Source of the DNA: Ptychodera flava
Lineage: Eukaryota > Hemichordata > Enteropneusta > Ptychoderidae
DNA length: 64,000 bases
Assembly: GCF_041260155.1 (NCBI RefSeq)
Contig: NW_027248373.1
Location: 496,001 to 560,000, forward strand
Direction: 5' to 3'
Positions 1 to 62,621 of this stretch are shown here, in pieces; position 1 is the first letter of the stretch; each line of letters starts with the position of its first letter. The notes below the pieces were generated by a model. The model had not been told where the DNA came from. It did no database searches and saw only the letters and a program-made list of their open reading frames with translations. Position numbers and translations under genes: made by a program.

Positions 1-991
1 TTCGAGGGGCAGACACTTTCCGATTTGAGTAAATATAACTTTATTGAATGCTATCGTGATCTCTTCAAACATAAAAAGGAGAGAACGAACATGACACTGT
101 ACGGAATTCAGAACGAAAATCTAAGAAAATTAAGAAGCGGTGCGACCGATGCAGATGCTGCCGTCGTGGGCGATAATTTACTTTTCGACACATATAAAAC
201 AAAATATGCTATTCGTCTCACTCATCCCCTCATAACAGGCCATGGAGTTGCATATCCAAAAGCGTTAGGGAGTCATATTGAATGGGAAATTACGTTGGCA
301 CCCGCCCCCAATTACTTGTCAGTAATCAGTTTATTACAACCAATTATAAATTAAAAAACATTCAAATGGAATACGAGACAATTTCTGACCTCGATCTCGC
401 GAGGTCAACTGCTGGTTATTACAACGGTGGAAAAAGTTACCTTTACGAGCATATACATTATTTTAGAACAATCCCATTCAAAGAATCGGACACGGTTATC
501 AATGAAAATATAAATGTACCACGACGTAGCATTAGAGGTATCGCTATACTCTTCACTAAAAATCAGAATCAGGCAGAACTGAACAGTGAACTTTTCTTTA
601 ACCCATCCATTGAATCTGTGTCTGTATCAATCGAAGGCATTGCAAATAAAGTGTACGCTCAGAAGATGATACCAAGACAATTTTGGCGAGAGGTGCGACG
701 GTATTTTGCTGAAGATAAAGATTGGTGTGAAATTGATATAGATGAGGCCGATTATTGAAGAATAAATTCTGTCTGTTTATCGATCTGCGTAGTTTTAAAG
801 ATATTGAGTTTCATGGAAATGGTTTAAAAGTAATGAACACAAAGGACGGAATTCAACTTGAGATCCTGAAGAAAGATACCGCGTGGGGTGGCGATGACGC
901 TCACAATGATAATATATTTGCCCACATTTATGTTATCAGTGATGCCCTAGTCTCTATTGAAAATAGTAGATTAATGTCTTTACAATTTTAA
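1..991 (+). pseudogene. Polinton capsid-protein candidate (partial)
   Basis: The reading frame is open at base 1, so the protein starts upstream of the window. The readable segments resemble, from memory, a protein found many times in cnidarian, mollusc and hemichordate genomes next to Polinton genes. Landmarks include a segment ending in PRRSIRGIAILF near 0.53 kb, VSIEGIANKVYAQ near 0.63-0.66 kb, and a C-terminal end of the form IENSRLMSLQF just before 0.99 kb. The beta-rich, poorly charged character and the place in the element suggest a jelly-roll capsid protein, but no diagnostic motif proves this. It is a broken fossil part. It runs toward the polymerase, which is on the opposite strand, so the two are convergent. 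Confidence 0.5.
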
Positions 992-3900
992 CCATGACCC
1001 GTCGTCCGTCCTATCGGCCATGTTTCTGCCAACCATTCGCCCGTGTCTGGATTGTATAACTGCACACGTTTGATATCATTTGGCGCCATCATGATTTTAC
1101 TACGCTTTTCACTACGGATTTCTCCAGCCTTTTTCCGTACAAACTGTACAAATTGTGCCGGCTCGGGCTTCTTCCCAGTTTCAAACAGATCTTTATAATC
1201 TTCAAAGTTCAAATGTTTTCTAACACAAACATCTTTCACCCCTTTATTTTTTTCTCTCCGAAGTTGGAGTTCGAAAAGCATACACTTTCGAGCGTATGCC
1301 GACAAAATCAAGAATAGGTTCACCATTCAACTCATCTTTAAATTTACCTATCACTTTTTTATTAATCTTCGGAAAGTTGGGCGCGAACTCATCCCACTAG
1401 TATCATATATAGACTTCTCACCATTCTTTTCCACATCTTCACGAACTATATCATTGAAAGTTACGTCGGATCCGGGGAGGGTATTGGTACACTGTAAACA
1501 AAACTGTCAGTATCCATGTAGGCTAATCGTATTCCAGGGAACTGGGCCCGAAAGTAATTGTAATGCGTCTCATACATAAGCAGCTTAGAAAGTTCCAGTA
1601 CTGCTGCGCCAATGAAAACTGGTTTTACATATCTATGCTCATCCGTTTTCAGTTCCAGTAGGGCACTGTCGCAGGAATCACCATCCTCTTCGGAAGTTAT
1701 GAAAGTTATATGTTTCATCTTTGGATTATACTTCTGAATCTTTTTACGTCCACTATCCGTGCCGTTCCAGTCCGAAACAAATTTAAAGTCTCTGTACTTT
1801 CGAACATCTTCTATTGTCTTACCGAACATTGCATTATTCATCAGCTTATAGAAATTCTTTTCAAAATCTGTCTCCCCTTTGCCCTCATTTTAGTGTTAAA
1901 GTCGATATATTTCGCGAGACATGGAGCTTCATCGAAAGCAAGCACCCGATAAATCTTTTTCAATCTCATTCCCATCCGAAGATAGAATTCCAGCAACTTG
2001 TAGTGTAAGACATAGGACTCTCTATCCATCACACTTGTAATCAGTCGACCGCCCTGCCTCGGAAATTCATAGTGATGCGGTGCTAATGGCAAATCGCTGT
2101 GTTCTTCATGTAATTCGGCTGGGTATTCTAAGTCTACTTCTAGAAAACTTGGTGGAAAGGTGGAACCAGGTCCCCACCCTCCGCCAGCTCGGCCCCCCGC
2201 TCCGCCTCGGCCCCTTCTTCCCATTCCTCCCACTCTTCCATCGTCATCCAATGAAGTCCGCCCGTAGGCATTGCCTGACTCATTGCCCAGCCGTAGAGAT
2301 TGTTTGCATCGAGATATTTTATTTCGGTCACCGGCTTCTCTGGATCGTAATTCCCGCCGGCGGGGCCAGCGTAAGCAGGATGATTTGTCTGTAAATAATG
2401 AATATTACACTGGCTGATACCGCCTCGAATTCCCCGTTGTACGAAAGTCATCTGCTCAGCATCTTGAATGAGTTTAAACTTATTACCCGTGTAAAGTAAC
2501 ATAGCATCCCATGTCAAGCCAGGCGCTGACATGTAATGGGCCGGATCTAACTTATATGCTTCTAAACATGTGTCGCGAAAATTTTCGAATATATTAGCAA
2601 GAAGGAGAACATCCGTCTCACAATAGAATTCCATATAATCACGAATCGTCTTACATCCAACTTCGTCCCATACTCTTAATGCATGTTCGTAATCGGACTC
2701 TGAAATCCCCTCTTCCGTCAATTCGCTATAAAATTCCCCCTCTCCGGGAGCTGGTTCTCTCCCAGTCTGTCAACCGAGTCTAAATATTCGTAGGGAAGAA
2801 ACCTTTCGCCCTTTGAATGTCCGGGTACGAAGTGGGCCGCCGTCCACCCCTGGGTCTCCGGCACAGTTTTGCCAACTTCGCCAATGACCCCATCATCAGC
2901 TGAGCACTGTCCATAAACTTTATAGAAAAGAAACGTCTCTTTATCTCCCTCTTCCCTCCGGCAACAACAATTGAGGCGTGAAAAATAAATGTTTTCGAGA
3001 GACCCATAATTCCTCCATTGCTCGTCTTAGCTATGATTTTAGGCTCTGGTCCGGAACCCCCATCATCTCCTTCGGTAACGATTTCATGTAATTCTTTCAA
3101 AATAAAAGAACCATCGTATCCCTTGAGGTTGTGAAAGTAGATAGGAATGGTTCTCGACGGCCGGCATCCTTCGCAATAGAAGGTCGCCTCCTCCTTCACT
3201 ACTCGGTATCCTGCCGGCTCTCCACATGCAATACAGACTGGATCACATCCGTCGCGCCGGTAATTAGAAGGATCCCTCATCGGTATTATTTTCCAATAAT
3301 ACGATTTAGAATAATACTCGGCCCGTTCTTTCATATCCTTTAGAAAGTCTGTAACACAGGAGAGACCTGTGAATGTTCTTTTACCATAAACAGTGGGTCG
3401 GCCGGGCCTCGTTTCGAAGGTCCCCACCCCCGTTCCACCCATAACATATGAAAGACAAATTGGAATGTGCGGCCGGTCCCCTTCTCAATAATTGCCTCAG
3501 TATCTGCATAGACGACGTAGGGAGAAGGAACCTTCTTCCGATGTCCTTCAAATTGACACACTTCCTTAGGAAAATCTGGCTGGGCAGTGTCTGTTCCACA
3601 GTATACCTGATGTTTTTCTAATTCTTCTGTTGACTTAAAACCTCTTTTACAAACCATACAAATACACTTCCGTCTGCGCTCATTCTTTCGATTAGTACGA
3701 GAATTACGAAGGCGATTTTCCGCAGTAATTGGTACGAAGTGAGAACGGCCGCCGTCTTCACCAACTATCAGTAAGATATTTGCTATTTGATTCCTATCGG
3801 CTTCACCTTCGGAATGGGCTCCGCCTTCCGTTCCGTCAGGGCTCCGCTACAGCTACTATATAAACATTTATTCCGGACGGATCGGGATCATTTTCGTAGA

Positions 3901-4471
3901 TCTGAAATACTTGAAGTTTGATGCTGGATTTTGCTGCTCGAAGCGCCTGAATACAGTCAGATCGGCGGGCGTGGGCGTGGGAATACCTTCCCAACAGTAG
4001 TCAGCAATAAATGGGGCGTACGTATTCCATTTTCTCCTTACCTGACCACATTTCTTTTCACGAAACTCGGGGTCGGCCAACTTTAAACTTGCTACGATGG
4101 CGTATTGAAAACAGTTCTCGCTGCCCGAAGGTAGCACCAGATCGCTCACACAATGCTTATTTTTTAACCATCTGGGAAGTTGGACTGCGCCAGCTCCCCC
4201 TTCGGAACGCTCCAGCCCCGAGTAAAACTTCTACTAGAATTACTTCAAAATTAAGTATCTCCTCGAGAACGAGACCAGAACCCTCAACATTTTCAATTGT
4301 ATCAAGCATACGATCGTAGCGATCTATTAATTGTTGCCCCACATCCGATCCCGATCCTCTTACATCTTTTGTGTATGTATCATTTAATTTAACATACAAT
4401 GAACGCGGTTGTGTATTACCAGTTTTCGGATCCGATAATTTGACTTCCATTTCAGTATAAACAGAGTACAT
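988..4471 (-). pseudogene. Protein-primed family B DNA polymerase of the Polinton
   Basis: The element's replicative polymerase, read right to left on the minus strand. An N-terminal region lies at about 4.47-3.87 kb and a short zinc-finger-like stretch (CxxxFxxxxxLxxHxxxC type) near 3.6 kb. The exonuclease motif I region (YADTEA) is near 3.5 kb, exonuclease motif II (FHNLKGYDGSF) near 3.15 kb, and the exonuclease III neighbourhood (CETDVLLL) near 2.6 kb. Polymerase motif A (LDANNLYGWAM) is near 2.3 kb and motif C (YMDTDS) near 1.5 kb. This order is the one expected for the family, whose members usually have roughly 1,000 or more residues. A GC-rich acidic insertion rich in E and W codons lies around 2.15-2.25 kb. 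It is clearly identifiable but broken in several places. Confidence 0.9.
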
Positions 4472-4846
4472 CTTTCGTTCCGAATGGTTTCTTTGACCAT
4501 ACCTTCAATATCCACCAGCTCCCCGATATCCTTGACTCGCTTGACTTCAGGAAATTTTTTTGTAAAACTGCTCCCTTGAATGCTGTATGTAAACTGGCCA
4601 TCTTTATGATATATACTATCCTAAAATTTTTAAAATGAAAAAATAATTATTCTATGATAGGTCATCAAATCCACTATAATATTTTTGTCAGCATTTATTT
4701 GTTTATATATCTCACCTAATCTTTCTAAGTCGACTAGTTCTTCCACATCTTGAATTTCTGGTTTATTAGGCGCAGCACAAAATATAATCTCTCAACAGTG
4801 AAAGAAAGGCCACGCTTACTTAAGCGCGGTTTAAATGCTAAGAATT

Positions 4847-5407
4847 CTATCTTACTACCTTTCGGATATTACGAGGTACAATAGCAGGATTTTCTCGGAC
4901 TGGTAGTAACGGACTCACTGTTTTAAAACCGCAGTCAATTTCTTGAACCATATCAATACATGTAGCGAAATCGTGATTTCTCCCTCTCCCTCTTTTAAAC
5001 TGAAATTTAAAATACCTCATGCCCGGCTGTGCCTCGCTCCCTCGCTTCTGATACACTTTAGATGGATTGTAAAATCCGCAGGAATTATTCTTGGAGTGAG
5101 CGGCCAGGCTTGCAGCATAACTTTTAGCAGTGCTTGCATTGAAACTTTCACCTAGGGTACGGAATATTATTAAATCGGTAAACTTTTGAAGACTCGGTTG
5201 CCAACGGACACACACCCCATCGCATGTAGCAGGATCTCCTCCCGAACCATATTTAGGTCCGATGTTGAAAACTACTTCTAGCTCACTGTCTACGTATATG
5301 AAAGGATCTACATATTCACCAAATACTAATTTGCCTCCATCATCAATTTTGATGTTTTCTCCGGTTTCAAGTATTTTTATTGCATCTGAAATAGAAAGGA
5401 TTGTCAT
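4847..5407 (-). CDS. Unknown Polinton protein, 186 residues
   Basis: An uninterrupted frame of 186 codons between the polymerase and the divergently placed kinase-like part. I do not recognise the family. It is mixed alpha/beta in composition, with a strongly basic C-terminal half, a GRGRN stretch and two Cys residues near the middle (DPATCDGVC). There is no signal peptide or membrane segment. Its start lies about 65 bp from the start of the + strand kinase-like part, so the two may share a bidirectional promoter in the AT-rich gap at 5,408-5,472. The basic tail could suit a nucleic-acid-binding or terminal-protein-like role, but that is only a guess. Confidence 0.55.
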   Translation of the reverse strand: MTILSISDAIKILETGENIKIDDGGKLVFGEYVDPFIYVDSELEVVFNIGPKYGSGGDPATCDGVCVRWQPSLQKFTDLIIFRTLGESFNASTAKSYAASLAAHSKNNSCGFYNPSKVYQKRGSEAQPGMRYFKFQFKRGRGRNHDFATCIDMVQEIDCGFKTVSPLLPVRENPAIVPRNIRKVVR

Positions 5408-5472
5408 TGTCTTATCGTATATATCTTAATAAAAAAAAATTTAAAAAAATTTCTATGATATAGTATCCCAAA

Positions 5473-6692
5473 ATGTCATACATATTCATAAATGGACCAA
5501 CTGGAAGTGGTAAGAGTTACGATGCAGTAAATTTGGATCCGTATCACGTACCAGAATTTGACACTAGTTTTTCCAGCAACATTGCCGACTTTTATAATGG
5601 GCGCCACGTTTCGATTGCCGATTTTCAGAACCAGTTTATAGAACATACGCTTAGTTTACAATGTCAGGCTGGGAGGAGGAGGGAGGAGAAACCTCCCCCC
5701 TCCTTCAGAACAATACATTATTTGTGACTCTTCCATAATTCAACATCTGACTTTTTCTCGAATCCGGGGCGTTTCCACGGAGTGGGAAGAAAAAAAGATT
5801 GTTTCTAGAGCATTTGACCATTTACCCAGTTTCATTATCATATTCAAAGATATGCCTTGGGATTATTGCAGGCGGAATGTGTTGACTCGAGCCAGGTCGT
5901 ACGAAATAGCCGCCTTAGAAGAACTAGAAGAGATTCACAATAAGTTCAAACAGACTTTCTTAGAAATTTGCCACGACTACAGACTTCCATGTTTGGTAAT
6001 TCGGAACGCTCTTACCCCCCTCGTTCTCAAGAATATACTTAATCCAACAATTGATACCGAGACAGTCGGACCAGTAGAATATCCACGAGCTTTTGACTTT
6101 GGAATTGCATGGGGCAGCTCACGCGATAGCGGCAGCCAGGGATTTTTAATAGACGGTTTCAAGGAGGAGGAACTTGAAAAAGCGTACTTCCCACCTGGTC
6201 AAGAACAACTAGAACAACCTCGAGTCTCACTAAAGAACCTACACAAACTTCTTAACGCTTGTGAATCTGTGTGTGCTTATAATGCTTCGTTTGACCTACG
6301 AGCACTTGACATTATGAAACCCTACGGTTCTGTAACACCGGACTTTGAAGTTACTTGTCTATGGCTCATGTCAGTTGTGTACATTATACTTCAACCAGAA
6401 ACTTATCGATAAAGCTGAAAAAGGGGGACTCGAAAGAACGGACTGTGGTAACATGAGAAGTCGTTTTGAAGATCTTGCAAACTTAATATGTTCAGGAACT
6501 GAGGGGGCCCCACCTCATCCACATACGGCCGAAAAAGATGCAGTAAGTGAACATTACTTACGACAGTACATGATAAATACTTGGCCAGGTGGGGGGTGGA
6601 AGTGGGGTGGTAAACTGACACTTTCGGCTTTCAAGAAATTAAGACTTTTTCCATGGTACTTATTGAATAACTTTCGTAAATACTTACGTTAG
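5473..6692 (+). pseudogene. Deoxynucleoside-kinase-like and DEDDh-exonuclease-like part of the Polinton
   Basis: The + strand part starts with a P-loop, GPTGSGKS, at about 5,494-5,517. At about 5.86-5.97 kb a stretch with RNVLTRARSYE followed by LEELEEIHNKF resembles the LID and following helix of the deoxynucleoside kinase/thymidine kinase family. Downstream are three spaced motifs of a DEDDh 3'-5' exonuclease: FDFGIAWG near 6.09 kb, NASFDLRALD near 6.28-6.31 kb and HTAEKDA near 6.52 kb. Nucleotide salvage and proofreading or end-trimming would both serve a DNA element that copies itself. I do not know this combination as a standard Polinton gene. It is broken. Confidence 0.55.
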
Positions 6693-6718
6693 TACTTGAC
6701 AAGTACCAGCACAGGAAC

Positions 6719-7839
6719 TTACGAAGTTCTAATAACATTTCCTCTCGGCTCCCAACTATTGAAACTTTCTGGATAACCTTTCCATTTTATCAGATAATAT
6801 TTCTTTCCTCTAATTTTTTTCGTCTTCAAAATTCGTTCAACTCTGTACAGCTCGTCGCGTTCTGAAGGTGCGCTCTGAAGTTCATCGGAGTAGAAAGTGC
6901 CGAGTATTTCCTCTCCATTCAGATCTTTTATTTTGTAAACTGGTGGCGTTCCCAAGCCAGCTGCGTACACAACTTTTGAAACACGAAAATCTCCTCTGTC
7001 CAATTTGGTAAATATCCTTTCTTAAAAGTGGTCTTGTATTTTGTAATTCGAACCCGTTCTCCCGGCTTGAATTCAGGGTTGGCTCCCCGGCTGCCAACTC
7101 AGGACCGAATAGTGTATAAAATGCCTGCCAATCGTTCTCCTCTGTTACGTCCCTGGGTTTCATTTTGATACTTCCGTGAACGGTGTTATTGTAATTCTCG
7201 AGAAGGTGGGGTAGAATGGGGAGCCAGGAACGTGTCTGTTTATATGTAAAGTATTTCCACATCATCGTCTTGAGGGTCCGATTAAAACGTTCAACGACGC
7301 TAGCTTTTTTGTCACTGTAGGTGTGAAACCAATGAATGCCTGACTCCTGGAGCCACCCCTGCATTTTTCGATTAGTAAATTCCCGCCCCTCATCTGTCTG
7401 AAGTTTGTCGGGCCTTCTCCCGGATTTCTTAATCACGTCTTGTAGCGCCTGCAACGTATCATCAGCCGTTTTTGACTGTATTGGCCTAGCCCAGGCATAT
7501 TTACTGAGTACATCGATTACTGTTAGCATGTATCGAATGTTATGATTCTCTTTTGCGAAGGGGGAGGGAATTCCACGAGGTCGCCTGCCAAAACTCGTCC
7601 ACCGATGTTACGAAAACGCGCCTCCCGCCCGAACACCCCCCGCGAGTACGAGGTACCGGTTTATGTAGATTATAAGTTAGCTGAGTTTTTAACCAGTCCT
7701 GCACCTCTTTCTTAGTAACGTGGAGTCCGCTGGCCCGTGCTGCGTCATACAATTTTTGTACACCTCCAAAACCAGTTTTCGGGTTGTAATATAATTCTCT
7801 AAGAGTGCCTTCAGCGGAGCCTTCGGCTTCAGCTTCCAT
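6719..7839 (-). pseudogene. Polinton integrase with C-terminal chromodomain
   Basis: A retroviral-type DDE integrase on the minus strand. The N-terminal region (LRELYYNPKTGFGGVQKLY, then LHKPVPRTR) lies at about 7.84-7.64 kb. The catalytic core at about 7.53-7.1 kb shows MLTVIDVLSKYAWARP for the first aspartate, LQTDEGREF for the second and VERFNRTLK for the glutamate. The C-terminal chromodomain at about 6.87-6.73 kb shows YLIKWKGYPESFNSWEP. Family knowledge: this enzyme inserts Polintons with a 6 bp target duplication, and the chromodomain directs it to modified histones. It is transcribed toward the kinase-like part, so the two are convergent. The domain order is complete, but the gene is broken in a few places. 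Confidence 0.92.
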
Positions 7840-7854
7840 AATTGCTATATTATA

Positions 7855-8485
7855 CGAATAATTTTATGTCGTACGGATTCCGTAAACGAAATACTAGTTT
7901 ACTGAATGGTCTACTTTTCAATTGCTTGATTAGGCCCACGGCTTCCTGTTCTGACACCTCCATTCCATATTCTTTTATAATAGTTTTGTTGTCTATCTTG
8001 TTCGGTGTGTAAAATAGTACTAACATCTGTATGTTTTCCCTAATGGTTTACTAATACTAGTATATGTTGAGTCAGAACCCAGACAGATAATCCGTCATGT
8101 CTTGCGCTGAAACCAAGTTGGACTAAAACGTTACTGCGCTTCTTCATATCTTTGGACGAGGCGCAGTCATCGAGGATTATTAAAGTGTTCGTTCCAGCCC
8201 ATTCTTTATGCACGTAGGTTAATGTATCATCCACTGCATCGAGTCCGACTGGAAATATAAACACATTATCATCGGTGAAAATGAATCTTCTATTATACGC
8301 TTTATTATTCATGAATGTTGGGCAAATGAATATCACATATTCGAATTTCCTTAAGTACGGACCGGTGAGGAGGTCCAACATAAATTCTGTTTTGCCAGAA
8401 TATGTCGGTCCAGTTATAATCATGTTGAATGGTGGGGTACGTATATTGACATTTCCTCTGGATCTATATACTGTAAATTAATGAA
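7855..8485 (-). pseudogene. Polinton packaging ATPase (FtsK/HerA type)
   Basis: The genome-packaging ATPase of Polinton-type elements. Walker A (GPTYSGKTE) is near 8.40-8.42 kb, preceded by a short acidic-hydrophobic lead. Walker B (LIILDDC) is near 8.18 kb and a sensor-like segment (LGFSARHDGLSVWVLTQH) near 8.05-8.1 kb. The order and spacing match the A32/FtsK-HerA packaging ATPases of adintoviruses, Polintons and virophages. Its C-terminal part continues to about 7.86 kb. It lies just upstream of the integrase on the same strand, as in many Polintons. It is broken. Confidence 0.85.
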
Positions 8486-8557
8486 TCTCTTCTAGTTCTT
8501 TTAAGTTACTGGTTCGAGTTAGATGAAACCCAGTCACATCGACAGCATCTGAATGAA

Positions 8558-9980
8558 CTATATAGTTAGTGACTTTATTCCAGTACCTACAATAGTAATG
8601 AATATTGCTAAAGATAACAAACCAATTTTACCATATTCGTGAATAGGGTCTACGCTGGTCACGGCTGCTGCCCGTTCTGGGGAGGGGAGGGGAGGGGACC
8701 GAGTCGTGTCATTGTGAGGTGACTCTCCGGGCTCGTCCTGCCACTTCACAGGATCCCCCCCCTCCTCCCCTCCCCCTCCATCTCATGTACAGCACTTTCT
8801 CGAACTTCCGTGTTTATATCACCATTCACCCCGAAGGACATAGATTCTGTTGCGTATTGCAATTCATTATTATAACCCGAGATTGCCGGGCCCGAAAGAA
8901 TGACCATCTCAGACGGTAAGAGAAGTAAATTTGGTGAGACTGCCATATCAAGTTTGACGCCAGTATTCATTATTGTGTCTTGATATCGCCTATAACTAAT
9001 TACTTTGTCGGTATTACGAATTTCATCTTCGAGGAGAACACCGAATTCTTTTCGGACTTGCTCTGCACTGCCAGTATCGCCCACTATGGTACTAGCGAAT
9101 ATTTGCTTGTGCGCCGAGTATGCAATATACGTAGGCTTCAAGGCTTTCATTGAGGCGGGCGAGACCGGCCTTTGTTAGTCCCGAGTCTCCCTTCAGAGGA
9201 ATGAAACTATTGTATTGTCCCTCCGATCCATCATTTCGGAAGAAATAATAGTGTGTCTGTCTTTGTCGGGCAGTACATGTTTTTTCTTTCCAAAAATGGT
9301 ATGTGTATAGAAAACGCCTCCGTCGGCGGAGAGGAAAAAGTCATGACCGTTGTATATCGCTTTTGGCTGTCGAACAGGCCACGATTAGTGTAATATTCAT
9401 ATCCATAACCAAGACCTTTATTTTGACCTTTTCGATAACGAAAGTCGGACTTCGTTGGACTTATATTTCCAAATTCTGTACATAGAAGTTCATATTGGAC
9501 GAGATTGTATGGATTGTCGCCGGCTTTGAAGGTGGGGGTATCGTCTGGAAGTGCAACGCCCATTTCATGAAGGATACGACGTATTGTAAAATATACATGG
9601 AAACGGCAGAATGATCGTATTTGCGGAGGAAATTTCTTATCAAAGAGATGGGCGAATGATATACCACAACCAGTAGTGCTGCACCATACAGCGAAATTCA
9701 GTTGCTGGTCCCAGTATTTCATGTTTGGTCCGCCCAGCCAGACATTACTTTCTTTCGCTGATCGATGAGTGATTACGTTATCTTTGAACACATCCCGTGG
9801 ATGAAAAGTAAATTTATCTGTCGGCGTTACATATATTTCTAAGTCCATGAGAATAGGTTTTATTCCTCCGTCCGGTTTGGAAGGAATATCAGCATGCTGT
9901 ACTGTTGGTATGCTCGTCTTATTCAATTGAAAAGCAACTGGGAATAAGTCTGTACTCATTATTCGTGTTTCTATATACAT
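8558..9980 (-). pseudogene. Conserved structural-protein candidate of the Polinton (~500 residues)
   Basis: A minus-strand part with two clear segments. The right one (about 9.98-9.23 kb) contains QLNFAVWCSTTGCGISFAH and a basic aromatic region. The left one (about 9.15-8.75 kb) contains SAEQVRKEFGVLLEDEI and LPSEMVI. From memory, these belong to one protein family repeated in many marine invertebrate genomes beside Polinton genes. At the left edge (about 8.56-8.62 kb) a hydrophobic stretch (IGLLSLAIFITIVGTGI) could be a membrane segment of this protein or of a small separate one. The function is not established, and a virion or capsid-associated role is inferred from context only. It is broken. 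Confidence 0.5.
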
Positions 9981-9990
9981 ATAGATTTAA

Positions 9991-10122
9991 ATGGAGGAGA
10001 ATTTTCCCGGAATCCCTGTCGGAATCCCTGTCGGTACGGTTCTGTTAGGGGTACTAACATTCCAGACTATGTTAATACTTTATTTCGGATTCAGGTTTAA
10101 ACGAATTTTTTATTTTTACTAA
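9991..10122 (+). CDS. Small membrane protein of the Polinton, 43 residues
   Basis: A short complete frame divergent from the structural candidate, with only 10 bp between the two starts. The sequence begins MEENFPGIPVGIPVGT, is followed by a hydrophobic run of about 20 residues (VLLGVLTFQTMLILYFGF), and ends in a basic tail with FKR. It is predicted to be a single-pass membrane protein. The GIPV repeat comes from a direct 12 bp duplication (ggaatccctgtc twice). Polintons and adintoviruses commonly carry such tiny membrane proteins near the capsid genes. Confidence 0.4.
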   Translation: MEENFPGIPVGIPVGTVLLGVLTFQTMLILYFGFRFKRIFYFY

Positions 10123-10145
10123 GAATAGATAACATACTGCAAACA

Positions 10146-10465
10146 ATGGAGAATTTAATAAAGTCATCAGCAGCGGCAAATATGGCAGCGCATTCCGAAG
10201 GGCTTCGGCGCCTTCGGACAATAATCAATCCATAATAGAGACAAAACGTGAAAAAATACTCTGTGTCATCGCAAGTGGTCAAAGTAAGTTATTTTTTGGT
10301 AAGGAGTTTACAGTTAGAGAAGTGGAAAAGTGGAAAGATGAATTCATAACACGAGCCTTTAAAGTCTATGAAGCGAAATACAGTTCTCTTATAAGTGATA
10401 CCATCACTCAAAGTTTCATAGATCTAGGAGCCCGTGCAATCAGTCAGGTAGTTCCCAATCGATGA
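10146..10465 (+). other. Short Polinton frames of unknown function
   Basis: A frame starting at 10,146 (MENLIKSSAAANMAAHSEG) and a second one ending near 10,465. The second has the helical, charged segments KEFTVREVEKWKDEF and DTITQSFIDLGARAISQVV. Both are on the + strand, between the 43-residue membrane protein and the proline-rich region. No family is recognised. A short GC-rich palindromic stretch with repeated CTTCGG lies at about 10,197-10,220. These are probably remnants of one small gene. Confidence 0.35.
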
Positions 10466-10619
10466 TCGAGATAACTATGCCACTGATCTTAAAAGGATTT
10501 TATTCTAAACAGTGAAATAAAACGATTATCAGGGGGAATAGCGTACACCGTGGGGGCCCCTGATTGCTCTAATTTCCACCGGTTTAATTACGGGTAAACA
10601 TTTAAATTTTAAAAAATCG

Positions 10620-11165
10620 GGTTTAATATAGTACCTGAAATAAATGGATTCAACTTCGCGACTCAGCAAACGGCTCCGCCAGGGACTCCGTCAGAAGCCC
10701 CGCCGACGACCCCCACACCGCAAACGGCTCCGCCGACTCCGACACAGCGCAACATAGAGAAAGTGACGTTACCGCCGAAGCATCCAGGGAGAGTTGCTTC
10801 AGGCAAGCGACTAGCGGAATGGAACAGGCAAACAGGGAGAAGAAACTAAAAGCAATGGAGGGGGGGAGAGGGGGGAGGGGATATGATGCGGTAGCAGACC
10901 TACGCCTACAATGAAAGAACAGTGTGATAATAATTCACGTGGTATAATAAATGTTATCTTGTTTTAGGAATTGTGGGAGTTTCATTGACTGCATTAGGGC
11001 TATATTGGGGGCGTGCTCGACATACCCCTGTTCCGTCCGGAAGATCCTCCACAGAAAGCGAAAAAAAACAGAGCACGTAGCAGCTCCATCCGGAACAGTT
11101 CCGACAGGGGTTCCGAGAGGAGGGGAGGGGGAGGGGGAGGGGGGGTGTTCCCAGCTCCTCTACAT
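10620..11165 (+). pseudogene. Polinton proline-rich, basic, membrane-anchored protein region
   Basis: A Pro/Thr/Gln-rich segment at about 10.65-10.75 kb is followed by KHPGRVASGKRLAEWNR near 10.78-10.83 kb. That lysine/arginine-rich motif occurs, from memory, in a Polinton and adintovirus minor protein. A hydrophobic helix (GIVGVSLTALGLYWG) near 10.97-11.01 kb would be the membrane anchor. An alternative frame over 10.64-10.76 kb is extremely arginine-rich and may be coincidental. Purine-only G-rich tracts lie at about 10,857-10,880 and 11,119-11,147. It is a broken fossil part. Confidence 0.45.
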
Positions 11166-11231
11166 TGTATGAGATGGATTAACTCCCATATTTTTATTTT
11201 TATTTTTTATTTTATATACTAGTCAGCAATC

Positions 11232-11459
11232 ATGGATATTAAAACAGTTGTAAACACAATGTACGATGGTATTGTAATCGCAGGACTTGCGATGGGATAT
11301 CTTATGATCTCCAGCAAATTTCTGAAAATAGAGGTTGGCGATCCAAGTCGTCCAAATTTGACTCGATTGGCAAAATTAGGCGGTGCGACTGCTGCCGCGG
11401 TTGCGACCAAAGATCTCCTTGAACAGAAAAATATTCCTGCAGAACCTTATACTTCGTAA
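11232..11459 (+). CDS. Small Polinton membrane protein, 75 residues
   Basis: An uninterrupted frame of 75 codons. It begins MDIKTVVNTMYDGIVIAGL, so a hydrophobic helix covers about residues 12-27. A charged segment with GDPSRPNL follows, then an Ala-rich second helix (GGATAAAVATKDLLEQ) and a short tail. From memory, this two-helix protein is a recurring small gene between the capsid and penton genes of animal Polintons. The start follows an AT-rich leader with TTTATATAC at about 11,210-11,219, which could hold a TATA element. It is intact and among the best preserved genes of the element. Confidence 0.6.
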   Translation: MDIKTVVNTMYDGIVIAGLAMGYLMISSKFLKIEVGDPSRPNLTRLAKLGGATAAAVATKDLLEQKNIPAEPYTS

Positions 11460-11532
11460 TGGGCACCTTCGGAATAATAATAATATTCATCGAACATTTA
11501 TACTTAGTAATATATACATACAACGTACAACG

Positions 11533-12262
11533 ATGATCATTTGGATTGAAAGCAAAACAGGTGAACCTGTTACTGTTAATTTTTACCCTTGTATTGACAC
11601 GACACAGTTTACGAAGATAAGACTGCTAGAGTGCGGACTATATAATTCATGGCATAACATAACATCGACGAATAATGTAATAAAATATCAAGAAGGTGAC
11701 CAACCGAAGAAGACTAAATCAATACGTCCAGGTAACTACAATATCGATACGTTAAACAAAGCAATCGGGTTGAAGCAAAAAATTAATTTGAAAAACATCT
11801 GCCGACAAACCACGTTCTTCTAACTTTGGCTAAAGATGTTAAAGTTTATTTCAATGCTACAGGTAGCTTCGCCAACGTCGTTGGCTTTTCAGATAAGCCA
11901 GAGGACAACCAGTTATAAAAAGTACTATGAGTCCGAAGAAAGTGGATTTCTTAACAGTCACTAAATATATAGTTCATTCAGATGTAGTCGATGTTACTGG
12001 AAATTATGTTTCATTTGGTTCGGGTGCCTCCGGAGGATACATACAGGGGAAAGTATCGAACTGTTTACAAATACTTCCCATCCGGGATACGAGAGAAATA
12101 AGTGAAAAGGTTACTTACGATTTTAAAAACGGAGCAATTTCTATGCCATTGAGAAAAGGGGGAGATTACATGAATTCAATGCGTATCTGGATAACAGATC
12201 AGGATGGGAACATGATCGATTTCAATAACTGGCCAATTAGCTTTTGTATTGAATTATTGTAG
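11533..12262 (+). pseudogene. Polinton penton (minor capsid) protein candidate
   Basis: The N-terminal segment starting at 11,533 (MIIWIESKTGEPVTVNF) is followed by LLECGLYNSWHNI and IRPGNYNIDTLNKAI. This matches the start of the single jelly-roll penton proteins of Polintons and adintoviruses. The C-terminal end near 12.17-12.26 kb shows MRIWITDQDGNMIDFNNWPI, again the usual end of that family. The penton would form the capsid vertices with the major capsid protein. It is broken, and its ends are taken from those family features. Confidence 0.7.
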
Positions 12263-12289
12263 TCCCGAAGCGGGGCCGGTGTAACCCTA

Positions 12290-12714
12290 TCGGAAGATAA
12301 ACCATCCCACGACCAATCCTCCAGCAATATATATCATTTCATATTTCTTTTGCTCAGGATGGGTTGATAATAATCTGAGAATTGCGCTAACGCTTGCGCT
12401 GGACTTGACGTAGAGTTGCTTTGCACCGCTTCTGCTTCTTCCAGGATTTCTGCATCTGTATCTCTTAATTCTGCCGCAGCATGTGCATCCTTTGCCTGAT
12501 TTTCTCTTTCCCAGTCAGCCTGGAGTAATCTTTTTTCTGACCAGACGTTGCGATCATGTTCAAATTTTTCTAATGCTTTATCATGTCGAATTTTCTCTTC
12601 AATAAGAGCTCACCATTCCAGAAAGCTTTTGTCCGATAATATTTCCTCCTGTGAATGCCGTTGCATTTAATACAGCACCGGAACTGTCATTCCTATAGCT
12701 GAAGCCATGACTGT
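12290..12714 (-). pseudogene. Polinton coiled-coil protein (PX-like)
   Basis: A minus-strand part in which the N-terminal end near 12.71 kb reads MASAIGMTVPVLNATAF. It is followed by a highly charged helix with HDKALEKFEHDRNVWSEKR near 12.59-12.53 kb, and further helix with many Glu, Ala and Gln residues to about 12.38 kb. From memory, a small Ala/Gly-rich head followed by a long charged helix marks a recurrent Polinton protein of about 140-150 residues and unknown function. It sits between the penton-like part and the fibre-like genes, convergent with the former. It is broken. Confidence 0.45.
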
Positions 12715-12770
12715 GTATTGTATATTACAAGGTATATTTTATTTTCACTGTATATAGGTCCCTACGGAGT

Positions 12771-13196
12771 ATGTCTGATCCAAGTGGCTTCGGTCTAGGT
12801 ACAATTCGTATGCAAAATCTTGAGCTTGAAGATCTGAGTGATGTTAAAGTTAACAATAATACTAAGATGGCTGCTAATCATAATAAGGATTACGTCCTTC
12901 GTTATAAAGACCGCGAAAAATATTTCGTTTTAGCCAATGCCGCGGCGCCACCCCACGAACATGCTGTAGAATTTTCCGAACTTAAAGACATTGATGAAAC
13001 TGTAATTGACGCCACAAAGGCTTCGAATGATTCTACTCCTTTTGCTCTGACATGGGATGGGGATAGTCAGAAATTCATGCCTTATAATGTGCCGCGTAAC
13101 ATCTTAGATATATTGGATAGTGAAATTGCAGGAGGTGTTGCTGAACCACCAGGAACTCCGAATGTGATTTATTTTGATAGCAATGTAAACAAATAA
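12771..13196 (+). CDS. Fibre-like Polinton protein, 141 residues
   Basis: An uninterrupted frame starting MSDPSGFGLGTIRMQNLEL. A repeat-like stretch LEDLSDVKVNNNTKM and YVLRYKDREKYFVL recalls the shaft repeats of phage and virus fibre proteins. The C-terminal part is acidic and Pro-rich. There is no membrane segment. It lies at the right end of the element with a lectin-like gene next to it on the same strand, so the pair may encode the attachment structure. The family is not recognised with certainty. Confidence 0.5.
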   Translation: MSDPSGFGLGTIRMQNLELEDLSDVKVNNNTKMAANHNKDYVLRYKDREKYFVLANAAAPPHEHAVEFSELKDIDETVIDATKASNDSTPFALTWDGDSQKFMPYNVPRNILDILDSEIAGGVAEPPGTPNVIYFDSNVNK

Positions 13197-13218
13197 TATA
13201 AGTGTTAGATTTTCGTAG

Positions 13219-13833
13219 TTGGCTTACTCCTACGAATCCATACATTGCACTTCTTGGTATCCAATTCATCTTAAAATTAGTCCTCTTAATACAATAATGA
13301 AGGCAGATAATACACTAAGAAGGTGGATAAACGAGGGGGAGAATTATTGCTCGTATACAGCTAGCGGAGTTCCAGTTAGATTATTTTGGGACACAACTTT
13401 AAAGAAACTGGGTCTTAAAAGTGTCGGTGATGAGGCAGCTGTTCTCACTTTACAGACTGTAAATCAACAGATGACTGATAATATGAAAATACTTCAACAT
13501 GGTACAGTTCTCATTAGATGTGTAAAGTTAGCTACTGGAGATGAATTTGACGATTTGGTTGGATATTATGCTATGAAAACAGATAACAGAACAACTTGTG
13601 ATATTATCATAAGTATTGATAAAGATCGGGGAGGGGAAATGAGTATTGAATGTTTTGTTGGTGGGAATAGAATAGAGAACGACTTAGGAACTACATTTGT
13701 ACGTAGAGATAAAAGAGTGAACACTTTAGATATCAGTACCATTCATCTGAAACGTCTCATATTATTTGAAGTAATGGTCTTCCGTCACATTTTAAGTTCA
13801 GAGGAAATTACTAAAATTTTATCTATCGGGTGA
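13219..13833 (+). CDS. Lectin/LamG-like Polinton protein
   Basis: A frame of 204 codons, with a more likely internal start at 13,297 (MKADNTLRRWINEGENY). The body has alternating hydrophobic strands (TVLIRCVKL, CDIIISIDKD, MSIECFVGG). The end, LILFEVMVFRHILSSEEITKIL, matches the closing strand and helix of concanavalin A-like/LamG jelly-roll domains. With the preceding shaft-like gene it suggests a receptor-binding head. It is the last gene of the element. A hairpin-like sequence (gaacaagttc and gaacttcgtgttc) lies just downstream at 13,833-13,866. The frame is open, but the exact start is unsure. Confidence 0.45.
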   Translation: MAYSYESIHCTSWYPIHLKISPLNTIMKADNTLRRWINEGENYCSYTASGVPVRLFWDTTLKKLGLKSVGDEAAVLTLQTVNQQMTDNMKILQHGTVLIRCVKLATGDEFDDLVGYYAMKTDNRTTCDIIISIDKDRGGEMSIECFVGGNRIENDLGTTFVRRDKRVNTLDISTIHLKRLILFEVMVFRHILSSEEITKILSIG

Positions 13834-14177
13834 ACAAGTTCGCACCGATAGGAACTTCGTGTTCAACATCAGCTAGACTCCGCGACCGGCCGGCCGGACT
13901 GACAACGGGGGTCCTTTATATAGGCTAGTTTGATGGTGTGATGACTCACACGGAATTTCCCGTACACCTTCGGAACGTGTATAAACATGCTCAGCAGGGA
14001 ATTTCCCCGCTTAGTTCAGGACAATGCACTGCTGCGCGTGCGTGAGTTCGTATATAGGTCAGGGTCATACTTTAGTTACATGGATGGTTAATTTTTCCTT
14101 CGCTTCATGTAGATAAATGAATAAAATGGGGTGTAAAATTCTTACTTCATCCCAGTTGTCCACGTTTACTTTACTAC
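13834..14177. other. Non-coding right flank of the Polinton
   Basis: No coding signal. It holds a small hairpin at 13,833-13,866, two TATATAGG boxes (about 13,917 and 14,052), two copies of GGAATTTCCC (about 13,951 and 13,999) and GC-rich patches. The end of the Polinton should lie here, but a terminal inverted repeat cannot be confirmed because the other end is outside the window. Confidence 0.4.
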
Positions 14178-14842
14178 TTTCAATATTTTTAGCGTGCTCT
14201 TCAAGCGTATTACGTTAATATATCAGACATTTTTCAGCACACCCTTCCTGTGCATTACTTTGATATACAAGACATATATATCAGAGATATCAGGATGTTC
14301 CATTTTTTCTCCGCGCCCTTCGGGCGCCATACTTTAATAAATCAGAGATATATGCCAGAGATATCTTGATGTTTGCTAAGTGAAAGTGTACTATTATGAA
14401 ATCTGCATTTCAAATGAAAAGCATGACAAATTCCTGATACTTTCTGTTCTCTCTATGAGAATTAAGTATGAGAAAGCAACATGCACAAATATCAATGTTA
14501 CAAGAAAAGGTCATCTCAGACTCTGCACACATCAGATTTGGCTAAAATGCCTCTCTATTGTTCCCCAGGAGATTTAATTGGATGGCTGGCAAGTCTTAAC
14601 ACCCATCAAAGTTAACTGCTTTTTCCTGTTGATATTCATGATTGACATCCATTTCTGTACAACAGTTCAGGACATCCGGTTAAGCATAGAAAGTGTGAAA
14701 TACATTCACAGCTCAATCAAAATGTACTGTATTCAAACTTTAAGATTGACACTTTGAAATTCCTTACAACTGACATGCCAACATTTCATTAAAACACAGA
14801 ATGACTTCAAATATAAATGTATGTAAAATATAACAATATATT

Positions 14843-14897
<55 letters not shown>

Positions 14898-14915
14898 ATA
14901 TATATATATATATAT
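14178..14915 (-). repeat. Inverted copy of the inner part of the 62.3-63.6 kb DNA element, with (TA)n
   Basis: Positions 14,178-14,845 are the reverse complement of about 62,625-63,275. Shared landmarks include the 16 bp palindrome with GCGCCCTTCGGGCGC-like core, repeated ATCAGAGATAT boxes, and the stretch around TTGGATGGCTGGCAAGTC. Both copies are bounded by (TA)n, here 14,846-14,915. The outer termini of the 62 kb element, with the G-rich inverted repeats, are missing here, so this is a truncated copy or a separate inner element. No coding capacity is seen. Confidence 0.8.
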
Positions 14916-14994
14916 TGTTGATGTTTATTACACCTCACTCATTCAGCGTGCACTGTCATTGGTTAAACACGACTCACGTGATATGTAAAAGAAC

Positions 14995-15389
14995 GTGATA
15001 ATGCCCTCTGCGAACTTGACGATGCCCTCTGCGTTTGATATTACATGGATGACGTCATTTTACTTACTGCGCATCCTCTATGCGAAACGTCATGCAGAGC
15101 TGTCACCGGCACAGTTGGACGATATTTTGATGCAAGTAAACAGAAAACGAACGAAAATGGCAACAAGGAATGCATTTTCTGTGTTCAGCGACTATGCAAG
15201 CAAGCAAATTTGGATACGGCCAACCGAGGAGATCGGCAAACTGTCAACGGCAACCCTATAGACTCGGCACTGACAACATTTTACGCTGAGGTTCGGACTC
15301 ATAAAGACGAACTGTACTCGAAGAAGTCTTTGTGTTTTTGGGCCTTTGCTTGTTTGCTTGTTCGGTGTAATAAAAATAATAACACATGA
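14995..15389 (+). pseudogene. Crypton-like (tyrosine-recombinase transposon) 5' gene remnant
   Basis: One + strand frame has TKMATRNAFSVFSDYASKQ and a second, overlapping frame continues with DSALTTFYAEVRTHKDELY. Together these resemble the helical N-terminal region that precedes the recombinase domain in Crypton elements and in the Crypton-derived host proteins QRICH1 and ZMYM. The change of frame, at about 15,240-15,260, marks it as degenerate, and no catalytic domain follows. Repeated GATGCCCTCTGCG boxes lie just upstream (14,999-15,030). A recent host-gene fragment is an alternative. Confidence 0.35.
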
Positions 15390-16245
15390 GAGCTAGGGCA
15401 ATATCACGTTTTTTGCCTGCCCTCGGGCTGGTGGTCATGATCGAAATACTGATGATGCCCTTGCCTACAGGCACGTGAATGTAGGTATATGATAAGAACA
15501 TTAACTGCATGGTCCGATCCTCAGGTCAAATCCAAATATACTGCAATTTTTTAACCGCGCTGAGTATGGCCTAGAACATTTGACACAACTTCAACATCCT
15601 AACATCGAACTGTTTTTTGTGTCAGGCCCTTTTAAATTCGTTTAAAGGAAAGCAAATAATGATGACTATCAAAACCAAAAGTTGGGCAACTGATCTCAGT
15701 GCCAAAAAAACATATGAAATCAGCGAAAGGTTAAAAACAATCACATAAAACGTTTTATTTCTGAAAACAGCCTTTCACAACAAATATTTCTAACATTGAG
15801 AAAAGCGTGGGCTTGAAATATGTGCCAACACGGAAAAGCTAAGGACCAAAAACTCCGATCATGGGTAAGTTTTTGCACCACTAACACTGGATTACACACA
15901 AATGGAGTCAATACATATGTGTCGAAACCCACGTTAGAAGACGAATAACAAAAAATTAGGCTTACTCTTTATAGGTGACCAAGGCAAATGACCATGAGGT
16001 CAAATCACAATGAAGGCGCGATTTTGCACGATGTTTAAATATCGGACAATCTAGTATCGAAGTTTCATGTCCAACATATTTCTATCATACATAACAATCT
16101 CGGGTCTAATATCGATAGGTTAGACGATACTTGAATGACCTACCTTGTGTCGCAGCATGACGGGTCTGTGAAATTGCCGATGTTTTACGAGTTTGTTAAA
16201 TAAACAAGTCACTCTTAGTCTCTGGTTGTACATTCACTCCTTTTA
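15390..16245. other. Spacer without recognisable gene
   Basis: No convincing coding frame on either strand. Mostly AT-rich unique-looking sequence with scattered TATCGATA-type boxes toward 16.1 kb. Confidence 0.5.
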
Positions 16246-18507: not shown

Positions 18508-25323
<6,816 letters not shown>

Positions 25324-40415: not shown

Positions 40416-40815
40416 ATTTGGTGCCGAAACCCGGGAGAAAAGGACGACAGAAGATGATGTGAAGACTTGCTACCCGCCTTACTTGAAGATTTGAAGAACG
40501 TCTGGAACTCAAGACGCCCGAAGAAGTGCTACCTGTTCGATGATATGAAGAACCAACTCAAGACGCTTGAAGAAGTGCTACCTGCTTTACTGAAGATTTC
40601 AAGAACTTGAAAAAGTGGTACGCTTGAAGAGAATTTCGAGCCAGTGAAGATAGCCTACAACTGAAAGCTGATACTTGATCTGGTAAACCTGGAACTGAAC
40701 TGAACTGAACTGACTGAACTGAAACTTTCGACTTTGGTATACCAGATGAAACTGACTGAACTTTAAACACTTTGAAGTGGTGAGTTACCAAATAACTGAA
40801 CTCTGAACTGGTAGC
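40416..40815 (+). promoter_or_regulatory. BEL/Pao primer binding site and leader
   Basis: The tRNA primer site starts within 3 bp of the LTR end (about 40,418-40,436). The leader contains imperfect repeats of the type gaagaagtgctacctg and a GAACT run (40,690-40,720). Confidence 0.85.
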
Positions 40816-42045
40816 TTGCTATCCAAGCAAAAAGATTCAGAGCAAGAAATCTCGTCAAAAATGTCGCTTTCATATCTTAAAGGCTTGAGAACAAGATATA
40901 GAAATTTGTTGGACAAAGAGGTAGCTAAAGTTGATCCTCTAATGAGAAAACATGTCAGCACTGAAGAACTGGATCAACATATCTGGAAAATAAATTCAAT
41001 GAAATTGAAATTGAATGACTACTCTGAAAAGCTGACTGGAGTCAATGAGAAATTGTCCATTCTGGTTGAACAAACTGAAGATAAGAAAGAACAAACGATA
41101 TTTGAACAGGAAGAAGCAAGGGTTATGGACTTCCTTTCTACAGTTGAAGATGCTATAGGTGAGTTAACTGCATATGAAAAACACCTTCAGGGAAGTAAAG
41201 CAAGCATACATACAGGCCTAGAAAAGCAGATGGAAAAACTGATGGAGATTCAAATTCAAATGCAACAGCATACCAAAGAACTCTTACAAGCCCAGGCACC
41301 ACAACATCCCCCACAAGTGCCTTTTCAGGAACAGAGTACATCTGTTGCTGTGAAACTTCCAAAACTTGACTTGAATTGCTTCGATGGAGATGTCCTGAAG
41401 TGGAAAGAGTTTTGGGATTGCTTTGAATCTGCTATACACAAGAACCCTAAATTATCTGCCATCGAGAAGTTCAACTACTTAAGAAGTAAACTAAGTGGAG
41501 ATGCTATTGAAGCTATTGCAGGTATGGCTTTAATCAATGAGAACTACGAAATAGCTATCAAGTTACTTCAAGAGAGATTTGGTGATGAACAAACTGTTAT
41601 TAATACCCACTACAATAAGATCATGAATCTGACTGCAGCAGCAAACGAAACCAATAGTTTGCGATGTCTTTACGATACTATTGAGAAGCACCTACAAAGT
41701 CTGGCAGTAATGGGTCAAGATGTAAATCAAGATATATTCGTCTCCTTGATTACATCTAAACTTCCTAAAGAGGTGTTATTCCAACTTGAAATACAAAAGG
41801 GTCGAGAAGATAAGTGGACTGTACAAAAACTTCGACAACTTCTTGGCTCCTATATTGGTGCATTAGAATCAGCAGAACAATTTCCTTCAGCCTCACAAGA
41901 TAAAAGAAATTTTAAGAGTTTGTCACTGAATACCGCCAAGCCATTCCCGAAAGTGTCTCAAAGATCATCAGCAGAAGCACTTGTTATCAGTGAGAAGGGG
42001 AATTATCAGTGAGAAGGGGAAGTTTCTGCAGAAAGTTGACAAGGT
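40816..42045 (+). pseudogene. BEL/Pao gag-like part
   Basis: A Lys/Glu-rich coiled-coil N-terminus, a Gln/Pro linker near 41.28 kb, then LPKLDLNCFDGDVLKWKEFW near 41.36 kb, which opens the conserved capsid-like gag domain of Pao elements (DUF1759-type). It continues through AIEKFNYLRSKLSGDA and TINTHYNKI-like helices. It would form the intracellular particle. It is considered together with the rest of the element as a fossil. Confidence 0.85.
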
Positions 42046-62487: not shown

Positions 62488-62546
<59 letters not shown>

Positions 62547-62557
62547 TTATATATACA

Positions 62558-62621
<64 letters not shown>

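What the first reader, a model, noticed from the sequence alone, without database searches (positions are those of the whole stretch)
5473..6692. Kinase-like plus DEDDh-exonuclease-like part in a Polinton
Seen: a P-loop GPTGSGKS, a deoxynucleoside-kinase-like LID/helix region, and three spaced DEDDh exonuclease boxes (FDFG, NASFDL, HTAEKD), all on the + strand between the polymerase and the integrase. Known: Polintons normally carry polymerase B, integrase, ATPase, protease and capsid genes. Inference: this lineage acquired nucleotide-salvage and exonuclease functions, as some larger DNA viruses did, perhaps as one fused gene.
Basis: partly seen in the sequence, partly recalled or inferred. 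Interest (0 to 1): 0.7.

Follow-up and report, generated by a model that had tools for sequence, protein, structure and literature searches.

The report
Polinton kinase-exonuclease fusion gene, now broken
Inside a decayed virus-like transposon (Polinton) of an animal genome sits a broken gene that looks as if it once made one protein joining a nucleoside-kinase-like part to a 3'-5' exonuclease-like part, an unusual cargo for such an element.

Summary
At 5473-6692 (+), between Polinton polymerase and integrase genes, three overlapping open pieces carry in order a P-loop, a RxRxxE lid and three DEDDh exonuclease boxes. The chain occurs once here and in 0 of 300 simulated windows (patterns written afterwards). 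P-loop-to-lid spacing, 131 codons, fits bacterial deoxynucleoside kinases (129-135 in 12 of 18), not thymidylate kinases (0 of 12). PHROGs profiles hit each half at E about 3e-4; seven other window proteins reach at best 0.14. But Pfam gives nothing over its cut-offs, and PDB sequence searches are weak or empty. Lid and boxes I-II share one 256-codon frame without an ATG between lid and box I, so this was probably one fused gene. Two frame changes break this copy; the kinase DRS motif reads DSS. No relative was found, but no animal genomes could be searched; the fold prediction failed. Best reading: a nucleotide-salvage kinase fused to a proofreading or recycling exonuclease. New variant of a known kind.

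The parts
5473..6692 (+). broken gene: dNK-like kinase half followed by DEDDh exonuclease-like half
   Evidence: three overlapping open pieces in three frames; motif chain
5473..5724 (+). piece 1 (84 aa from ATG): N-terminal kinase part
   Evidence: 5473-5641 has its best codon-usage score in this frame of six
5494..5517 (+). P-loop GPTGSGKS
   Evidence: aligns with P-loop of bacterial dNKs
5584..5637 (+). ADFYNG...DFQNQF, resembles the dNK stretch FYxD..F..Q..F
   Evidence: alignment; not scored on its own
5642..6409 (+). piece 2 (256 aa): rest of kinase, then exonuclease boxes I and II in one frame
   Evidence: PHROGs hits
5711..5734 (+). QYIICDSS, at the place of the E/DRS motif of dNKs; arginine replaced by serine
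5888..5905 (+). lid motif RARSYE (RxRxxE)
6053..6070 (+). exonuclease box I, DTETVG
6092..6103 (+).
6281..6295 (+). exonuclease box II, NASFD
6336..6689 (+). piece 3 (118 aa): C-terminal exonuclease part (stop codon ends at 6692)
   Evidence: 6412-6689 has its best codon-usage score in this frame of six
6522..6539 (+). exonuclease box III, HTAEKD (H-x4-D, DEDDh type)
1464..3846 (-). Polinton PolB in several frames, with its own Exo I (3496-3510), Exo II (3113-3130) and Exo III-like (2503-2535) strings, recalled motifs
   Evidence: PF03175 in 2 of 4 pieces scanned, 34.5 bits (over the cut-off of 25.8) and 24.7 bits (just under); motif positions
4850..5425 (-). 192-codon frame of unknown function, head-to-head with the kinase-exonuclease gene
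   Evidence: no Pfam, PHROGs or NCBIfam hit
6722..7863 (-). integrase (rve core plus chromodomain), in several frames, tail-to-tail with the gene
   Evidence: PF00665 E 2.8e-13 on 6885-7607; PF00385 E 1.4e-12 on 6722-7021, none on 7543-7863
8043..8477 (-). A32-type packaging ATPase piece
   Evidence: PF04665 E 1.8e-11

Best explanation
The segment is the broken remains of one gene that coded for a two-part protein: an N-terminal deoxynucleoside-kinase-like P-loop domain and a C-terminal DEDDh (DnaQ/RNase T type) 3'-5' exonuclease-like domain. Shown: the motifs, their order and spacing, the shared frame across the junction, the location in a Polinton, and the two frame changes. Inferred: in intact relatives the kinase half raised the supply of deoxynucleotides (by phosphorylating nucleosides or nucleoside monophosphates) for the element's own polymerase, and the exonuclease half removed 3' nucleotides, either as extra proofreading or end-trimming or to release nucleotides for the kinase. 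The element probably took the gene in as accessory cargo between its polymerase and integrase blocks. This copy can no longer make the whole protein by ordinary translation.
For: Ordered five-motif chain once in the window, 0 of 300 simulated windows. P-loop to RxRxxE spacing 131 codons versus 129-135 in 12 of 18 bacterial dNKs; the pair is found in 0 of 12 TMPKs. PHROGs: thymidylate kinase family E 2.8e-4 on the kinase half, DNA polymerase family E 3.4e-4 (and a polymerase exonuclease subunit at 0.2) on the exonuclease half, while 7 other window proteins reach at best 0.14. PDB search with the kinase half: 12 of 13 sequences matched are NDUFA10, best E 0.027. NCBIfam: Pol III epsilon models E 0.059 and 0.26 on the exonuclease half. 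One open frame of 256 codons spans lid and boxes I-II, with no ATG codon between the lid and box I (read), so the exonuclease had no ATG start of its own there. Codon usage fits in all three stretches tested. Neighbours are Polinton genes. PolB has its own Exo I-III strings, so this would be an additional exonuclease.
Against: No Pfam hit to PF01712 or PF00929; piece 1 hits only general AAA models under their cut-offs (E 0.042 and 0.097), piece 2 only DUF2779 at 0.22. PDB: with the whole middle piece the best match is an arginine-binding protein, E 0.057, then NDUFA10 at 0.12; the exonuclease half matches no exonuclease (one RNF31 sequence, E 1.6); piece 1 matches kinesins and others, no dNK; the third piece matches nothing. 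Small bacterial profiles scored the pieces weakly and did not separate dNK from TMPK (kinase half: 33 of 2000 shuffles as good for dNK, 26 of 2000 for TMPK; piece 1: 22 and 41 of 2000; exonuclease half 7 of 2000), and the TMPK profile scored the unrelated third piece just as well (23 of 2000). The DRS motif reads DSS. Box II to III spacing is 80 codons against 57-67, and I to II 76 against 80-98, in the 14 of 21 bacterial exonucleases that fit. Single-sequence structure prediction had pLDDT 34.5 and says nothing. Only one, broken, copy seen; no relative found.
Confidence: 0.6

Rival explanations
1. The fused protein is a DNA-end-processing enzyme rather than a salvage enzyme: the P-loop part acts on polynucleotide ends or as a nucleotide-binding regulator, the exonuclease part trims 3' ends of the linear genome or integration intermediates.
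For: The arginine of the DRS motif is lost (DSS); the PDB matches of the kinase half are mainly NDUFA10, which by recall is a dNK-fold protein without known kinase activity; an end-trimming need is plausible for a linear, integrating element (inference).
Against: The lid RxRxxE and P-loop look complete and spaced as in bacterial dNKs; no polynucleotide-kinase family was listed by Pfam, PHROGs or NCBIfam.
Confidence: 0.2
2. The kinase half is thymidylate-kinase-like (nucleoside monophosphate kinase) rather than dNK-like.
For: Best PHROGs family is named thymidylate kinase; the small TMPK profile scored the half about as well as the dNK profile.
Against: P-loop followed by RxRxxE is found in 12 of 18 dNKs and 0 of 12 TMPKs; PDB hits of the half are to NDUFA10 and no TMPK is listed. 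The phage TMPK phiKZ gp188, chosen by its annotation, itself hits both Pfam families, dNK just under its cut-off, so the PHROGs name does not decide.
Confidence: 0.2
3. A host or other gene fragment that landed in the Polinton after it was already dead, unrelated to the element's life.
For: It is the only plus-strand frame with motifs that I recognised within the minus-strand block 988-9986; no second copy is available.
Against: It is packed tightly: 47 bases from the neighbouring frame at 5425 and 26 from the integrase frame at 6719, without visible introns, and its codon usage matches the Polinton frames.
Confidence: 0.12
4. Chance resemblance in non-coding sequence.
For: Every database hit is weak.
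Against: 0 of 300 simulated windows hold the chain or either half of it; two separate profile hits of matching meaning; long open frames with fitting codon usage.
Confidence: 0.04

Closest known systems
Deoxynucleoside kinase family, Pfam PF01712
   Same: P-loop, FYxD-like stretch, RxRxxE lid, motif order and spacing
   Different: DRS reads DSS; no Pfam hit; fused to an exonuclease-like half
DEDDh exonucleases (RNase_T, Pfam PF00929; DnaQ/Pol III epsilon)
   Same: D-x-E box I, D in box II, H-x4-D box III
   Different: longer stretch between boxes II and III; no Pfam hit; fused to a kinase-like domain
Polinton/Maverick elements (adintoviruses)
   Same: PolB, rve integrase with chromodomain, A32 ATPase; accessory regions with further genes are known in vertebrate Mavericks (PMC8097293, passages seen)
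   Different: the main text of PMC8097293 holds 0 occurrences of kinase or exonuclease; a table passage of PMC4981718 lists thymidine kinase for Megavirales and Caudovirales, not Polintons
Bidnavirus segments with thymidine-kinase-like genes (PMC11071296, passages seen)
   Same: small viruses whose PolB is adintovirus-like and whose segments often carry a gene resembling the thymidine kinase or dUTPase of larger DNA viruses
   Different: no exonuclease fusion is mentioned in the passage seen
phiKZ gp188, putative thymidylate kinase
   Same: matches Pfam TMPK and, just under its cut-off, dNK, so is of the same P-loop kinase group
   Different: phage; no exonuclease family among the best 25 of its 27 Pfam hits

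Membership tests
Deoxynucleoside kinase (PF01712) | P-loop GxxGxGK[ST] near the N-terminus | tested here: met
   GPTGSGKS, residue 8 from the ATG
Deoxynucleoside kinase (PF01712) | RxRxxE lid at the family's distance from the P-loop | tested here: met
   131 codons, ignoring the one-base frame change; 129-135 in 12 of 18 dNKs, 0 of 12 TMPKs
Deoxynucleoside kinase (PF01712) | E/DRS motif (recalled) | tested here: not met
   DSS at the aligned place in this broken copy
Deoxynucleoside kinase (PF01712) | score over Pfam's cut-off | tested here: not met
   no PF01712 hit; the pieces were scanned apart, which lowers the score
DEDDh exonuclease (PF00929) | catalytic D-x-E, D, H-x4-D in three boxes in order (recalled) | tested here: met
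   DTETVG, NASFD, HTAEKD
DEDDh exonuclease (PF00929) | score over Pfam's cut-off | tested here: not met
   no PF00929 hit; PHROGs polymerase family E 3.4e-4; pieces scanned apart
DEDDh exonuclease (PF00929) | RNase H-like fold | tested here: inconclusive
   model pLDDT 34.5
Polinton/Maverick | PolB plus rve integrase | tested here: met
   PF03175, PF00665, PF00385; protein priming itself not tested
Polinton/Maverick | A32/FtsK packaging ATPase | tested here: met
   PF04665
Polinton/Maverick | double jelly-roll capsid, protease | tested here: inconclusive
   frames 8749-9174 and 9234-9986 have no Pfam hit; no protease among the Polinton-side frames scanned
Polinton/Maverick | terminal inverted repeats | tested here: inconclusive
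   none framing the element among the 25 longest of 53 inverted pairs in 1-15500; the left end may lie outside the window

The most novel reading that the evidence does not exclude
An animal Polinton lineage carries an undescribed bifunctional enzyme, a deoxynucleoside kinase fused to a DEDDh exonuclease, which recycles nucleotides for the element's own polymerase: a metabolic gene of large DNA viruses in a transposon-sized virus.
Probability: 0.45. Interest if true: 0.65.

Novelty: new variant of a known kind. Interest (0 to 1): 0.5.

Why it matters
Polintons are seen as close to the root of many eukaryotic DNA viruses, and their core set concerns replication, integration and capsids. A kinase plus extra exonuclease in one of them would show that nucleotide-metabolism cargo, usual in larger DNA viruses, also moves into transposon-sized elements, and would give a trait by which copies in other genomes can be found and tested for virus-like life. 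The kinase-exonuclease fusion itself would be an unusual domain pair (judged from recall; one literature search, listed none).

Tried and rejected
Relatives: eight scans of viral contigs, of which seven with window peptides or patterns built from them gave no relative (the one locus, L001, is a chance match: I recognised no Polinton gene among its 5 frames, and its record gave no match to piece 2). Phage records and genome contigs gave none either. The back-translated patterns find close relatives only, and none of these collections is one of animal genomes, so the silence means little. The eighth scan used phiKZ gp188 as query and gave one locus, L004, not used. Family searches in the record of L001 gave nothing.

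Structure: single-sequence AlphaFold2 of piece 2, mean pLDDT 34.5, not used further. Small bacterial profiles: kept as weak evidence only; one search was a first build without a check of motifs (22, 13 and 15 sequences) and is superseded. Of 30 RNase_T loci I tried 29 and kept 21; of 30 TMPK loci I tried 14 and kept 12; of 20 dNK loci I tried 18 and kept 18; the 8 and 2 dropped did not pass a filter for no stop and a family motif in the first 25 residues. So 14 of 21 and 12 of 18 are after that filter, and the 15 genomes were chosen through a dNK P-loop pattern.

Considered and rejected: that the exonuclease boxes are a copy of PolB's own exonuclease domain (box III is H-x4-D, opposite strand, and PolB keeps its own boxes). 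Considered and not shown: ribosomal frameshifting or introns at the two frame changes; PolB and integrase next door are split among frames too, so decay is simpler. Assembly error as the sole cause was considered: a BEL/Pao element in the same window keeps frames of 401, 1097 and 420 codons, which argues against a generally error-rich sequence but does not exclude it here.

Papers: Polinton plus deoxynucleoside kinase, 1 paper listed, on algal viruses, not opened; Polinton plus thymidylate kinase, 2 papers listed, not opened; adintovirus plus exonuclease plus kinase, 0; deoxynucleoside kinase plus DnaQ plus fusion plus virus, 0. Wider searches were seen as listings only, most of them capped. 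Passages only were seen of PMC11071308, PMC11071296, PMC8097293, PMC3671162, PMC12721341, PMC10175614, PMC4981718; PMC10120064 held none of the terms asked. The adintovirus description paper is not held.

Full report
What is there. The + strand from 5473 to 6692 holds three overlapping open pieces in three successive frames: 5473-5724 (84 codons from an ATG), 5642-6409 (256 codons) and 6336-6689 (118 codons, stop ending at 6692). They carry, in order, a P-loop GPTGSGKS at 5494-5517, a lid-like RARSYE at 5888-5905, and exonuclease boxes DTETVG (6053-6070), NASFD (6281-6295) and HTAEKD (6522-6539).

More than chance. With motif patterns recalled from the two families, and written (gap ranges too) after I had seen the sequence, the ordered chain of five occurs once in the 64000 bases and in 0 of 300 order-2 Markov windows; P-loop plus lid alone, and the three exonuclease boxes alone, are also 0 of 300. 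Using codon usage learned from eight neighbouring minus-strand Polinton frames, the expected frame scores highest of six for each of the three stretches tested.

Kinase half. PHROGs phrog_761, thymidylate kinase, matches 5642-6043 at E 2.8e-4 over about 100 residues (7.3e-4 with the longer piece). Of 13 PDB sequences matched by 5702-6040, 12 are NDUFA10, orthologues of one protein, best E 0.027; NDUFA10 belongs to the dNK fold by recall. With the whole middle piece the top match is an arginine-binding protein (0.057), then NDUFA10 (0.12), and piece 1 alone matches kinesins and others but no dNK. Pfam has no hit to PF01712 or PF02223. To tell dNK from TMPK I fetched bacterial members of both: a P-loop followed by RxRxxE at 90-170 residues occurs in 12 of 18 dNKs, at 129-135, and in 0 of 12 TMPKs; here the distance is 131 codons (the one-base frame change is ignored; these are the sequences left after a motif filter). 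Placed as separate rows in the dNK alignment, the first piece also lines up ADFYNG...FQNQF with the FYxD...Q..F stretch, and the second lines up CDSS with the DRS motif, so the arginine is missing in this copy. Profile scores from the small bacterial sets were weak and did not separate the two families (dNK 33 of 2000 shuffles as good, TMPK 26 of 2000). I therefore call it dNK-like and do not file it as a member.

Exonuclease half. PHROGs phrog_17, DNA polymerase, matches 6014-6409 at E 3.4e-4, and phrog_192, polymerase exonuclease subunit, at 0.2; that the matched part of phrog_17 is its exonuclease domain is inferred. NCBIfam Pol III epsilon models reach 0.059 and 0.26; Pfam lists nothing; the PDB search finds no exonuclease, and nothing for the third piece. 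The bacterial RNase_T profile scores the half at E 0.0072 for one sequence, 7 of 2000 shuffles as good, and aligns its boxes at the right profile places; box III, in the third piece, aligns but is not significant alone, 113 of 2000. Box I to II is 76 codons against 80-98, and II to III 80 against 57-67, in the 14 of 21 bacterial proteins that fit the motif expression. Seven other proteins of the window scanned in the same PHROGs call as a background reached at best E 0.14.

One gene. The lid and boxes I and II lie in one open frame of 256 codons, and no ATG stands between the lid and box I (read). So in this stretch the two halves are one reading frame; a fused protein is the simple reading. 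The frame changes before and after this piece mean that this copy cannot make the whole protein by ordinary translation. PolB and integrase next to it are split among frames too, as expected of an old copy. I did not read the gene through or mend it.

Surroundings. On the minus strand lie PolB pieces (PF03175 in 2 of 4 pieces, one of them just under the cut-off) with strings fitting their own Exo I, II and III, a 192-codon frame without hits, an integrase with rve core and chromodomain and an A32-type ATPase. The kinase-exonuclease gene is head-to-head with the 192-codon frame and tail-to-tail with the integrase. PolB's own exonuclease domain is of another type (DEDDy, by recall), so the DEDDh one is an addition. 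OATP exons and a BEL/Pao element point to an animal genome. No terminal inverted repeats framing the element were seen among the pairs shown.

Relatives. None was found in viral contigs, phages or bacterial and archaeal genomes. Single-sequence AlphaFold2 gave pLDDT 34.5 and was not used.

What is known. In the passages seen, vertebrate Mavericks have accessory regions with diverse genes, and the words kinase and exonuclease do not occur in that paper's main text (PMC8097293); bidnavirus segments often carry thymidine-kinase-like or dUTPase-like genes, and bidnaviruses have an adintovirus-like polymerase (PMC11071296); a table passage lists thymidine kinase for Megavirales and Caudovirales only (PMC4981718). 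Searches for Polinton with deoxynucleoside kinase or thymidylate kinase listed 1 and 2 papers, whose titles are not about such a Polinton gene and which I did not open; adintovirus with exonuclease and kinase listed none. These searches cover only the held open-licence library.

How it most likely works. Shown: domain motifs, order, spacing, shared frame, place, decay. Inferred: the ancestral protein phosphorylated nucleosides or nucleoside monophosphates and removed 3' nucleotides, serving the element's own DNA synthesis. The fused form suggests that the two activities were useful together, for example exonuclease products feeding the kinase, but nothing here tests this. The missing DRS arginine, if also missing in intact relatives, would favour a binding or end-processing role.

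Noticed in passing
40807-46486 (+): Pao/BEL retrotransposon with long open frames (401, 1097, 420 codons; Peptidase_A17, RVT_1, DUF1759, DUF5641), fairly intact.
   Followed up: partly
8530-8574 (-) and 11956-12000 (+): A 45-base stretch is present twice in opposite orientation, 91% alike, and reads, by hand, as nearly the same peptide VT[NK]YIVHSD[AV]VDVTG; perhaps two related capsid-type genes of the Polinton.
   Followed up: no
14179-14915 and 62529-63276: A repeat of about 740 bases, inverted, 92% alike, ending in AT repeats; the first copy lies beyond the frame ending at 13833. Not shown to be a terminal repeat.
   Followed up: partly
18683-19735 and 24961-25320 (+), 22181-22546 (+): Exons of an organic anion transporter (OATP) and a Kazal-like stretch just under Pfam's cut-off, i.e. 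a host gene next to the Polinton.
   Followed up: no
4850-5425 (-): 192-codon frame without Pfam, PHROGs or NCBIfam hit, head-to-head with the kinase-exonuclease gene across an AT-rich gap.
   Followed up: no
19800-20400: Long microsatellite that gives open frames of simple HTYI/CMYV repeats on both strands.
   Followed up: no
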